This document shows positions 1-6,093 of a stretch of DNA of 29,040 nucleotides, piece by piece. Position numbers and translations under genes: made by a program. Position 1 is the first letter of the stretch. Every line of letters begins with the position of its first letter. The DNA is from a virus. Location of the stretch: the IMG/VR virus record IMGVR_UViG_3300027851_000098, positions 1 to 29,040 of that record. One strand, given 5' to 3'. A model generated the notes under the pieces. That model was not told the DNA's origin. It searched no databases and saw only the letters and a list, made by a program, of their open reading frames with translations.

Positions 1-656
1 GTATCCTGTCGGCGTCTACAAATCCTGGTGATGTCGTATTCGATCCCTTCTGCGGATGCGGAACTACTATTTACGCGGCCGAAAAGACCGGCCGCAAATG
101 GATCGGATGTGATATTGCCATCCTCTCTATAAAGCTGGTGCGTGAGGTCCTGGCAGAGCGCTATCGACTAGTGGAAGGTCATCACTTCGAGGTGGATGGC
201 ATACCCGTTAGTGTTGAACAGGCGCATGAACTATTTAAACGCGACCCATTTCAATTCCAGCACTGGTTTGTTGAACGTGTTGGTGGCTTTCCCATGCAAA
301 AGAAAGTGGCTGATCGCGGCATTGACGGCCGAATTTACTTTGAGATGCAGAACGGGCTTTGCGAAATGATCCTTTCAGTCAAGGGGGGCAGGTTGGGGCC
401 GACCGACGTGCGCGACCTGCGCGGCGTTATTGAGCGCGAAGATGCTGCTATGGGGGGATTCTTGTCGCTGAACGAGCCGACCAAAGCCATGCGTGCGGAA
501 GCGGCCGCCGCAGGTATGTATACCTGCGGGGACCTTCGGTACCCGCGCCTGCAGCTCTTGACGGCTAAGGATATTTTTGAGGGTAAGCGGGAGTTCCAAA
601 TGCCGACACGCATCAATACCAAGATCACCACGGGGCAGCAGTCATTACCACTGTGA
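1..656 (+). CDS. DNA methyltransferase with C-terminal Mrr-like nuclease domain, 5'-truncated
   Basis: The reading frame is open from base 3 at the window edge, so the N-terminus is missing. The visible start carries the motif DPFCGCGTT (bases 42-68), the SAM-binding motif I of N4-cytosine/N6-adenine methyltransferases of the order in which motif I lies near the C-terminal end of the catalytic domain. After it comes a domain with RGIDGRIYF and, further on, SVKGG, resembling the D...xxK core of PD-(D/E)xK restriction-like domains, then VRDLRGVIERE and EPTKAMRAEA. This pairing is known in annotated site-specific DNA methyltransferases. GC is clearly lower than in the phage genes that follow. 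It ends 5 bases from the stop of the convergent repressor gene. It may be host DNA at a prophage boundary, or phage cargo. Family confidence is high; nuclease activity is not shown by the sequence. Confidence 0.85.
   Translation, partial: ILSASTNPGDVVFDPFCGCGTTIYAAEKTGRKWIGCDIAILSIKLVREVLAERYRLVEGHHFEVDGIPVSVEQAHELFKRDPFQFQHWFVERVGGFPMQKKVADRGIDGRIYFEMQNGLCEMILSVKGGRLGPTDVRDLRGVIEREDAAMGGFLSLNEPTKAMRAEAAAAGMYTCGDLRYPRLQLLTAKDIFEGKREFQMPTRINTKITTGQQSLPL
508..529. repeat. Perfect 10-bp inverted repeat inside the methyltransferase gene
   Basis: CCGCAGGTAT and ATACCTGCGG form a perfect inverted repeat with a 2-base spacer. It lies in the nuclease-like domain of the methyltransferase and is translated through, so it may simply be a coincidence of codons. 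A protein-binding site is the alternative. Confidence 0.5.
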
Positions 657-661
657 ACTTT

Positions 662-1408
662 TTAGCCCCATGTGAGATGCGACACGACGCCCGCCACGAT
701 TTCGACCTGCCCAGGGCTGGCGAGGGTGGATGCAGGCTCTTCGCCGAAATCCAACTTTCGGACGTTCTCGCGGAACGCATCACCCGCAACACTCTGTGGC
801 GGAGCGGCGATCTGGATCGGCATCTGGTGTTCGGGTCGCGAGGATCTGGGCCATAGCCAGACCGACCCGTCCGTCTCCTGCCGGAACTCTTTGCACGTCA
901 TTTCGACGTCCCCGGCGTCATTCCAGCGGCGGATAATGACGGCATCACCCGACTGTCGGTCCGGGAGATCGTGCACCGATGCGCAGATCAATAGCGTGCC
1001 GGGCGGATAGACCAGGTTCATGCTTTCCCCGCGAACCTCCAGCGCGAATAGGTCGACGCCTGCAAATTTCGACGGGCGGGGGATTACCACCTCCTGCCAT
1101 GCATCGGCTTCCCCTTCCCATTCCCAATTTGGCTGCCATAGCCCGGCCTGGACATAGCCCCGCAGATAGATCGGTTTAACAGGGCGTTTCGCGGGCTGCG
1201 GATCGCCCTTGCCATACAGTATCCATTCGGGCGGAACGCCATAGGCCCGGCCGTACTTGGCCGCCGCATCGGCCCGGATGCCCCGCGTGCCGTTCTCATG
1301 GGACAGGTAGGTGGGTTCTTTCCAGCCAAAGGCCCGCGCGGCATCGCTGCCGCTGTCATAGCCTGCAGCCTCGCGTGCGGCCTTCAGCCGGTCCCTTGGC
1401 TCATCCAT
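662..1408 (-). CDS. CI/LexA-like phage repressor (XRE HTH + S24 peptidase)
   Basis: Lysogeny repressor of about 248 residues. Residues 1-65 form an XRE-type helix-turn-helix domain (RDRLKAAREAAGY, then a recognition region ending ENGTRG). The C-terminal half is an S24 self-cleavage domain: a candidate Ala-Gly cleavage site in GYVQAGLW (about 88-89), the catalytic serine in RGESMN (about 129) and the lysine in EMTCKEF (about 173). It would bind the operators at 1440-1492, shut off the rightward early promoter, and be inactivated by RecA-stimulated autocleavage. The frame extends three codons further to an ATG at 1417, but the AGGGG ribosome site touches that codon and is 9 bases from the ATG at 1408, so 1408 is preferred. 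It is divergent from the Cro-like gene and convergent with the methyltransferase. Confidence 0.9.
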   Translation of the reverse strand: MDEPRDRLKAAREAAGYDSGSDAARAFGWKEPTYLSHENGTRGIRADAAAKYGRAYGVPPEWILYGKGDPQPAKRPVKPIYLRGYVQAGLWQPNWEWEGEADAWQEVVIPRPSKFAGVDLFALEVRGESMNLVYPPGTLLICASVHDLPDRQSGDAVIIRRWNDAGDVEMTCKEFRQETDGSVWLWPRSSRPEHQMPIQIAAPPQSVAGDAFRENVRKLDFGEEPASTLASPGQVEIVAGVVSHLTWG

Positions 1409-1439
1409 CTGCATCATCCCCTATGATGGGCGACGTATC

Positions 1440-1455
1440 GCATAACGCGCTATGC
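1440..1455. promoter_or_regulatory. Operator O1 in the repressor/Cro intergenic region
   Basis: GCATAACGCGCTATGC is a near-perfect 16-bp palindrome: arms GCATA/TATGC around a CGCG centre, with one imperfect pair. The same half-site words recur in O2 about 30 bp away. It is the expected target of the CI-like and Cro-like proteins; binding is inferred. Confidence 0.7.
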
Positions 1456-1463
1456 ATTTGGCA

Positions 1464-1492
1464 TTGACAGCACGCTATGCGTTATGCATAAC
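1464..1492 (+). promoter_or_regulatory. Rightward early promoter (PR-like)
   Basis: A consensus -35 TTGACA (1464-1469) is followed, after 17 bp, by CATAAC (1487-1492; 4 of 6 matches to TATAAT). The predicted transcription start is about 1499-1500, only 2-3 bases before the Cro-like ATG at 1502, so the transcript would be essentially leaderless. Operator O2 overlaps the -10, so a bound repressor would block it. Confidence 0.65.
1474..1492. promoter_or_regulatory. Operator O2 overlapping the PR -10
   Basis: GCTATGC is followed directly by the perfect 12-bp palindrome GTTATGCATAAC (1481-1492). The half-sites GCTATGC and GTTATGC match those of O1. It covers the spacer and -10 of the rightward promoter. 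Confidence 0.65.
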
Positions 1493-1501
1493 CTGTTGCC
1501 C

Positions 1502-1684
1502 ATGACCGATACCGATTCTGAAATCCTGCGTATCCGCAACCGCCTTGGCTGGTCTCAGGCCGAAATGGCAGAGGCTTTGGGGCTGTCTCAAGCGACCGTC
1601 AGCCGGATGGAGCGCGGGGTTCTGCCGGAGCGGAAAGCGGTCCTGCACTTAGCCCGTAGCCTGGAAGAGGGGCGCGCGGCATGA
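1502..1684 (+). CDS. Cro-like XRE DNA-binding protein
   Basis: A 60-residue protein that is almost entirely one helix-turn-helix domain: LRIRNRLGWSQAEMAEALG, then LSQATVSRMERG as the recognition helix region. As first gene rightward of the immunity operators and divergent from the repressor, it is placed to act as Cro. The frame also opens at ATG 1484, but that codon lies inside operator O2 and upstream of the predicted transcription start, so 1502 is chosen. No Shine-Dalgarno sequence precedes 1502, which fits leaderless translation. Confidence 0.8.
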   Translation: MTDTDSEILRIRNRLGWSQAEMAEALGLSQATVSRMERGVLPERKAVLHLARSLEEGRAA

Positions 1685-1692
1685 GCCCCCCC

Positions 1693-1884
1693 TCAATCCG
1701 GTTTCGGCAGGGTCAGCCGCGTCTGCTGGGCTATCGCCTCGGCCGCGCGGGCGACGGTTTTCCAGAGTTCCCGTTTCGGGCCGTCTTCCCCCAGGGATCG
1801 CATACGCGCCGCGTAGGCGAGGTCCCCGGCGGCCCGGATCAGCATCAGTTTCCCGCTGATGCTGCTGATGATGCGGTGTTCCAT
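1693..1884 (-). CDS. Small hypothetical protein, minus strand
   Basis: A 63-residue protein starting MEHRIISSISGKLML and rich in Ala/Arg helices (IRAAGDLAYAARM). Start chosen because a strong GGAGGGG ribosome site lies about 5 bases upstream of the ATG at 1884; the frame is open further upstream but without such a site. No family recognised. It runs against the surrounding rightward early genes, between Cro and the early operon, so it needs its own promoter in 1885-2075; none is obvious. It might be expressed in the lysogen, or a regulator in the position of lambda CII/N; that is only positional. Confidence 0.55.
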   Translation of the reverse strand: MEHRIISSISGKLMLIRAAGDLAYAARMRSLGEDGPKRELWKTVARAAEAIAQQTRLTLPKPD

Positions 1885-5727: not shown

Positions 5728-6093
5728 TCAAACCAAATCATCCAGATCGACCCGCAGGGCCTGCGCCAGGCGCGCCAGAACCTTTGCGCTACCGGTCCGC
5801 TTGCCGCTTTCGATCTGGGACAGATAGGCTTGCGCGATGCCCGCAGCTTCCGCCAGGGCCTCCTGCGACATGCCCCGGTGCTCGCGGAACACGCGGACGG
5901 GGCTTTCCCCATCCAGCATGCGCTTGACCTCCTCATAGGGGATGCGGTCGCCGTCGTCGGACGCCTGTGCTTCCTGGAACAATTCCTCATCCGTCTTGTG
6001 CGCATCGCCCGTCAGGCGGTTGTACTCATCCCAGGGGATCACGGCATAGGCCGGGCGCCCATCCGGCCCGGTAATGATCTGCGGCTTGTTCAT
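5728..6093 (-). CDS. Antitoxin: Phd-like N-terminus with XRE helix-turn-helix
   Basis: 121 residues. The N-terminal third (PAYAVIPWDEYNRLT) resembles the Phd/YefM-type antitoxin strand and helix. The C-terminal 55 residues are an XRE helix-turn-helix (FREHRGMSQEALAEAAGI, AQAYLSQIESGKRTG). Expected to neutralise the RelE-like toxin encoded 12 bases upstream and to repress their promoter through the operators at 6391-6459. Ribosome site GGAGG lies 8 bases before the ATG. The toxin-first order is that of higBA-type modules. It runs opposite to the replication genes on both sides. Confidence 0.85.
   Translation of the reverse strand: MNKPQIITGPDGRPAYAVIPWDEYNRLTGDAHKTDEELFQEAQASDDGDRIPYEEVKRMLDGESPVRVFREHRGMSQEALAEAAGIAQAYLSQIESGKRTGSAKVLARLAQALRVDLDDLV

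What the first reader, a model, noticed from the sequence alone, without database searches (positions are those of the whole stretch)
1440..1504. Cro-like gene predicted to be leaderless, with operator over the -10
TTGACA-17-CATAAC places the start site at about 1499-1500, 2-3 bases before ATG 1502, and no ribosome site is present. The perfect palindrome GTTATGCATAAC overlaps the -10. A second near-palindrome with the same half-sites is at 1440-1455. Leaderless messages are known from lambda cI at PRM; here the leaderless message would be the cro side.
Basis: partly seen in the sequence, partly recalled or inferred. Interest (0 to 1): 0.5.

Follow-up and report, generated by a model that had tools for sequence, protein, structure and literature searches.

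The report
Phage switch gene starting without leader
In this phage the small "go lytic" regulator gene seems to be read from the very first bases of its messenger RNA, with no ribosome-binding site and with repressor sites lying over its promoter; the same layout recurs in dozens of related, mostly unnamed phages, although direct proof still needs an RNA experiment.

Summary
The sequence facts are correct: TTGACA (1464-1469), 17 nt, CATAAC (1487-1492), 9 nt, ATG 1502, no Shine-Dalgarno (SD). Comparison supports the leaderless reading. A protein-only search (12 repressor HTH domains) gave 46 viral loci; a cro could be placed in 43. With the window, 41 of 44 have their best promoter 5-9 nt before the cro ATG (exactly 6 in 28) and no SD stronger than -3.3; a strict rule holds for 39 of 44 cro genes and 0 of 338 control ORFs. 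PY54 cro, leaderless by 5' RACE, has the same CATAAT-6-ATG geometry; lambda cro does not.

The operator needs another register: 15-mers TATGC-N5-GCATA at 1476-1490 (O1, over -10) and TATGC-N5-GCATT at 1451-1465 (O2, into -35), plus a decayed O3. One repressor residue tracks the operator base in 38 of 38 loci scored (6 of 44 not scored, one of them an exception), from only about two changes on the tree.

The window's cI has an SD, reversing lambda; most relatives lack an SD on both sides. Leaderless cro has a precedent (PY54); its near-fixed use in this immunity class, and the operator code, were not found in my searches. New variant of a known kind.

The parts
662..1408 (-). cI-like S24 repressor (ORF runs to 1417; start at 1408, MDEPRDRL, preferred)
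   Evidence: Pfam Peptidase_S24 2.2e-10, HTH_31/HTH_3 below their cut-offs; phrog_4 transcriptional repressor 2.4e-21; SD -6.4 before 1408, 0.0 before 1417
1418..1422 (-). SD-like AGGGG of cI, 9 nt before the ATG at 1408
   Evidence: sequence; duplex -6.4
1430..1444 (.). O3, decayed third operator (GCGACgtatcGCATA, only the right half intact)
   Evidence: 6 of 10 half-site letters, centre 21 bp from O2; the same place holds 8-10 of 10 in many relatives, 2-7 in others
1451..1465 (.). O2 operator TATGC-ATTTG-GCATT; right half runs into the -35 box
   Evidence: one mismatch to TATGC-N5-GCATA, centre 25 bp from O1; conserved in relatives
1464..1469 (+). -35 box TTGACA of the cro promoter
1476..1490 (.). 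O1 operator TATGC-GTTAT-GCATA; right half supplies CATA of the -10
   Evidence: exact match; same position in relatives
1481..1492 (.).
   Evidence: present; last base differs in L005
1487..1492 (+). -10 box CATAAC
   Evidence: 17-nt spacer; in the 33 of 44 loci read in this register (11 left out beforehand, most with another register) CATA is constant and position 6 is T in 20, C in 3
1498..1502 (+). Predicted transcription start; G1498 and A1502 are the purines in this stretch
   Evidence: the first base of the RpoD motif lies 34-37 bp before the start in 1,542 of 1,666 Caulobacter cases (PMC4287350, passages), which gives 1498-1501
1502..1684 (+). cro-like HTH regulator, 60 aa, predicted leaderless
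   Evidence: HTH_3 1.4e-10; promoter gap 9, SD 0.0

Best explanation
A phage lysis-lysogeny switch in which the cro message starts at, or at most 4 nt before, its AUG. CI dimers bind 15-bp operators TATGC-N5-GCATA: O1 covers the spacer and -10, O2 (25 bp away) runs into the -35, so bound CI blocks RNA polymerase at the cro promoter; O3, 21 bp further, lies by the cI start and is decayed here. When CI falls (an S24 protein, so probably self-cleaved in the SOS response), the promoter fires and yields 5'-(GCCC)AUG..., translated without an SD as leaderless messages are. Shown by comparison: promoter, operators, near-fixed promoter-to-ATG spacing, no SD. Inferred: start site, CI and Cro binding, translation mode, induction.
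For: Protein-only set, no DNA pattern used (46 loci): cro placed in 43; with the window, best promoter 5-9 nt upstream of ATG in 41 of 44, gap exactly 6 in 28, SD never stronger than -3.3 in the 41. Strict rule (at least 9/12 with -35 at least 5/6, gap 5-9): 39 of 44 cro; 0 of 338 mechanical ORFs of at least 100 aa in the same loci; 0 of 44 cro at eight other gap ranges. The 44 cro form 34 clusters at 70% identity. Calibration: PY54 cro (leaderless by RACE) CATAAT-6-ATG, SD 0.0; lambda cI (leaderless) TAGATT-6-ATG, read by eye; lambda cro gap 24, SD -10.2. Module control: of 20 hits with both operators, 14 are leaderless-type cro and 6 are other genes with SDs of -6.8 to -9.3, so promoter plus operator does not force leaderlessness. 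R after HENGx with C/G inner bases in 21 of 21, S or D with other bases in 17 of 17. Host-side precedent: 171 leaderless starts in S. meliloti (PMC3616915, passages); 7% in M. extorquens (PMC9320726, passages). That the window's host is an alphaproteobacterium is inferred from relatives, not shown.
Against: No transcript or protein data. The window's gap (9 nt) is at the long end; G1498 as start would leave a 4-nt leader, not a 5'-terminal AUG. -10 CATAAC matches the consensus at 4 of 6. Three of 44 loci deviate (L250 and L258 with SD -9.3 and -7.2; L269 gap 38, SD -2.8). Cro starts in the comparison were picked by me from script output; 20 of the 41 have another in-frame start upstream. Of 10 relatives' cro proteins scanned, 8 hit HTH or YdaS/P22-Cro models, L112 hit nothing and L109 only a weak terminase model. 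One R-type repressor (L270) has a different operator, and the residue-operator match reflects only about two changes on the tree. More distant cI relatives outside this class include clearly leadered cro genes (L006 SD -10.3, L012 SD -9.6; others by eye).
Confidence: 0.8

Rival explanations
1. cro is translated from a longer, SD-less leader made at another promoter upstream.
For: SD-less leadered initiation exists in general (own knowledge); L269 in the same class has a 38-nt gap and SD only -2.8.
Against: Among 44 cro genes no other gap range up to 44 nt gives a promoter under the strict rule; a promoter further up would lie under O2/O3 and the cI start.
Confidence: 0.1
2. Translation starts at ATG 1484 (66-aa protein, MHNLLPMTDT...).
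For: In frame, and kept in L005 as MHKLLPMTDT; L261 also has in-frame ATGs there.
Against: It lies inside O1 upstream of the predicted start, has no SD, and depends on the variable N5 of the operator; 21 of 41 loci have no in-frame start upstream.
Confidence: 0.05
3. The short inverted repeats are chance or DNA structure, not CI operators.
For: Not significant by count in this window alone.
Against: Same 15-mers, same place, 25-bp spacing in divergent phages; the half-site base tracks a repressor residue in 38 of 38 loci scored.
Confidence: 0.05

Closest known systems
Phage PY54 (Yersinia) immB switch (PMC4488713, passages)
   Same: Divergent cI/cro; cro message starts at AUG by 5' RACE; CATAAT-6-ATG
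   Different: PY54 cI is also leaderless; its Cro binds one 16-bp site; the window's cI has an SD and its operators have another sequence
Phage lambda OR region
   Same: Divergent cI/cro, three operators annotated between them, repressor site over the cro promoter (recalled)
   Different: In lambda cI is leaderless and cro has an SD leader; here the reverse. Here 15-bp TATGC-N5-GCATA sites, centres 25 and 21 bp apart
CP-933P PaaR2/YdaS, E. coli O157 prophage (PMC8630535, passages)
   Same: Divergent repressor and Cro-type pair; some relatives' cro here match YdaS models
   Different: There RACE puts the leaderless message on the repressor side
acuR leaderless operon, Rhodobacter sphaeroides (PMC3017554, passages)
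   Same: Leaderless regulator gene in an alphaproteobacterium, AUG at the 5' end
   Different: TetR-family metabolic regulator, not a phage switch

Membership tests
Leaderless mRNA | Transcript starts at or within a few nt of the start codon | not testable with these tools
   Predicted only: promoter gap 9, start 1498-1502
Leaderless mRNA | No SD upstream of the start codon | tested here: met
   0.0 kcal/mol at 1502
Leaderless mRNA | AUG start codon | tested here: met
   ATG 1502
Lambda-type cI/cro switch | Divergent repressor and small HTH genes sharing one operator region | tested here: met
Lambda-type cI/cro switch | Operator-like sites overlapping the cro promoter | tested here: met
   O1 over -10, O2 into -35
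Lambda-type cI/cro switch | Three intact operators | tested here: not met
   O3 only 6 of 10 in the window
Lambda-type cI/cro switch | CI and Cro bind and cross-repress | not testable with these tools
   needs footprints and reporters
Repressor class with PTYAxHENGx recognition region described here | (Y/E)PTY(A/L)xHENGx(R/S/D) and a matching 15-bp operator | tested here: met
   EPTYLSHENGTRG with TATGC..GCATA

The most novel reading that the evidence does not exclude
Leaderless cro is the default in a large group of alphaproteobacterial temperate phages, often with an SD-less cI too, so that the lysis-lysogeny decision is read out by SD-independent initiation and could respond to ribosome state (for example subunit or initiation-factor balance under stress) rather than only to repressor level; the operator base is set by one residue next to the repressor's recognition helix.
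Probability: 0.3. Interest if true: 0.7.

Novelty: new variant of a known kind. Interest (0 to 1): 0.5.

Why it matters
Two papers on alphaproteobacterial prophages say that operators could not be predicted in silico, or that operators like those of lambda and phage 16-3 were absent (PMC4729917, PMC12429752; passages read). The 15-bp code given here, with a candidate specificity residue, makes operators predictable for this repressor class; I did not test it on those phages, and phiLM21 itself does not show it. If start sites are confirmed, a whole immunity class uses leaderless translation for its lytic regulator, a natural test bed for what leaderless initiation does in a genetic switch.

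Tried and rejected
Rejected: GTTATGCATAAC as the operator (broken in L005, N5 variable); 1440-1455 as second operator; start at 1484. Also rejected: that every alphaproteobacterial cro is leaderless. Of 15 named alphaproteobacterial records or genomes with a scored cro, 13 have no SD (weaker than -3) and 2 are leadered (Ancalomicrobiaceae MAG, gap 27, SD -7.2; Pleomorphomonas, gap 21, SD -6.9). Of the 13, RHph_N28_2 and Rhodoplanes do not have their best promoter at gap 5-8, and in some others it is weak or tied with gaps outside that range (RHph_TM3_3_3, A. salinitolerans, S. meliloti Ak57, Saccharibacter). For the two RHph phages I scored an ATG 9 nt downstream of the annotated start; five of the 15 starts (Ak57, M. 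aquaticum, the MAG, Pleomorphomonas, Saccharibacter) were read by me, not annotated. In Sinorhizobium K101, Bosea and Beijerinckia I saw no cro and left them out.

Led nowhere or little: PDB sequence search for the repressor (0 matches) and for cro (11 weak matches, best HipB antitoxin 1.8e-4); plasmid search with one repressor HTH (1 record). Of the 47 cI relatives I read the cI-cro region of 14. Dropped before the count of 44: L257 (contig end), L266 and L279 (no cro seen). Dropped before the count of 38: L246, L250, L258, L269, L270, L282; L270 is R-type with another operator. The protein-found and pattern-found sets share contigs and are not independent.

Full report
What was checked. The window is an IMG/VR virus record of 29,040 bases with terminase, portal, head and tail genes. 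Left of 1417 lies a minus-strand S24 repressor (662-1417), right of 1502 a 60-aa HTH gene (1502-1684). The generic promoter scan of 800-2400 lists nothing because it requires T at the last position of the -10; the box is CATAAC.

No ribosome site. The anti-SD duplex upstream of ATG 1484, TTG 1496 and ATG 1502 is 0.0 kcal/mol. Of 23 other ORFs of the window that I took as genes, 22 reach -4 or better at some start in their first 25 codons, 17 at their first start. The best-start rule is lenient, and by it cro reaches -4.0 at an ATG inside its HTH.

The operator in the right register. A scan of viral contigs for TTKACA-N6-TATGC-N5-GCATA, with no ATG required (68 stretches), gave 63 distinct contexts including the window. 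Scores for a second site TATGC-N5-GCATT 25 bp upstream are split: 20 score 9-10 of 10 and the other 43 score 6 or less. So the unit is a 15-mer: O1 1476-1490, whose right half supplies CATA of the -10, and O2 1451-1465, whose right half runs into TTGACA. Towards cI many relatives show a third 15-mer 21-22 bp from O2 (8-10 of 10 half-site letters), others do not; in the window it is decayed, 6 of 10.

Spacing to the cro ATG. Of the 20 hits with both operators, 14 have a small gene whose ATG lies 8-11 nt after GCATA, and 6 have other genes 26-36 nt away with SD energies of -6.8 to -9.3. The module thus occurs in both forms; leaderless spacing goes with cro. Nine of these 14 genes and one further locus (L067) were scanned against Pfam: 8 of 10 match HTH or YdaS/P22-Cro models, L112 nothing and L109 only a weak terminase model; L112 and L109 are linked to L099, a YdaS match, by BLAST. 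Because that set was chosen by DNA pattern, I repeated the test with a protein-only query, an alignment of 12 repressor HTH domains, which gave 46 loci. L257 runs off its contig, and no cro was seen at L266 and L279. In the remaining 43 plus the window the best sigma70-type promoter lies 5-9 nt before the cro ATG in 41 of 44, exactly 6 in 28, and none of these 41 has an SD stronger than -3.3. The exceptions are L250 (gap 34, SD -9.3), L258 (gap 29, SD -7.2) and L269 (gap 38, SD -2.8). With a strict rule 39 of 44 pass at gap 5-9 (L270 and L282 also fail), none at eight other gap ranges, and 0 of 338 mechanical ORFs of at least 100 aa in the same loci; 46 of 5,947 ATG triplets pass, a count that includes cro starts. 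The cro proteins form 34 clusters at 70% identity but one group linked at E 1e-3. Cro starts were chosen by me from the frames listed; 21 of the 41 have no other in-frame start before the upstream stop.

Calibration. PY54 cro, shown leaderless by 5' RACE (PMC4488713, passages read), scores gap 6, CATAAT, SD 0.0; lambda cI, known leaderless, reads TAGATT-6-ATG; lambda cro scores gap 24, SD -10.2; Salmonella phage S107 and Enterobacter phage CobraSix cro score gaps 27 and 23 with SD -10.8 and -8.7. In Caulobacter the first base of the RpoD motif lies 34-37 bp before the start in 1,542 of 1,666 cases (PMC4287350, passages); applied here the start is 1498-1501. The purines nearby are G1498 and A1502, so the leader is 0-4 nt. 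Among 33 loci read in this register, those with a gap above 6 carry a purine at the place of G1498 in 7 of 9, those with gap 6 in 10 of 24.

Who owns the operators. In 38 of the 44 loci both could be scored: the residue after HENGx in the repressor is R whenever the inner operator bases are C and G (21 of 21, window included) and S or D whenever they differ (17 of 17). Six loci were not scored; one of them, L270, is R-type with another operator. A tree of 42 HTH domains needs only about two changes of that residue, so this is close agreement but few independent events.

The cI side. In the window an SD (AGGGG, -6.4) stands 9 nt before the ATG at 1408, so the window is the reverse of lambda. 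Among the relatives, 40 of 45 cI starts have no SD of -4 or better. Whether those cI messages are leaderless, as in PY54, I did not test.

Other phages. Of 15 named alphaproteobacterial records or genomes with a scored cro, 13 lack an SD and 2 are leadered; not all of the 13 have a clear promoter at gap 5-8 (see Tried and rejected). A Rhizobium rhizoryzae plasmid carries the same promoter type and O1, and its annotated cro starts at the leaderless ATG. Several more distant cI relatives in viral contigs have leadered cro genes with strong SDs (L006 -10.3, L012 -9.6; L017, L027, L038, L044 by eye). The trend is real in the class but not universal.

Literature. Searches pairing leaderless with cro, phage, prophage, temperate phage, immunity region or alphaproteobacteria, and one on alphaproteobacterial prophage operators (some lists capped) returned PY54 as the only leaderless cro that I found. 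The library holds only open-licence PMC papers and I read passages, so absence is weak. Leaderless messages are ordinary in alphaproteobacteria: 171 in S. meliloti, all with AUG (PMC3616915), 7% in M. extorquens (PMC9320726), and the R. sphaeroides regulator acuR, translated less than its downstream genes (PMC3017554).

Mechanism. CI on O1 and O2 blocks the cro promoter; on CI loss the promoter produces a message beginning at or next to AUG, translated without an SD. A low-yield leaderless cro, as for acuR, is a plausible reason for the design; this is inference.

Noticed in passing
1693-1884 (-): Small ORF (MEHRIISS...LPKPD) convergent to cro, with GGGAGGGG upstream of its ATG; a near-identical reading is visible in L005. 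cro is thus directly followed by an opposing gene.
   Followed up: partly
3-656 (+): Truncated ORF at the window edge joining the end of an N6/N4 DNA methyltransferase domain to a restriction-endonuclease-like domain (NA-iREase1).
   Followed up: no
5728-6093 (-): HTH regulator of family phrog_7241, alone on the minus strand between early genes; looks antitoxin-like.
   Followed up: no
L050, L080, L089, L093, L064, L071: Same two-operator promoter in front of other genes with SD leaders; by eye the stretch between -10 and SD holds inverted repeats that include the SD, partly upstream of the predicted start.
   Followed up: partly
L111, L084; contig pairs L094/L102 and L088/L103: Several copies of the operator-promoter in one phage contig, suggesting repressor regulons beyond the cI/cro region; the window shows only O1 and O2 at up to one mismatch.
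   Followed up: no
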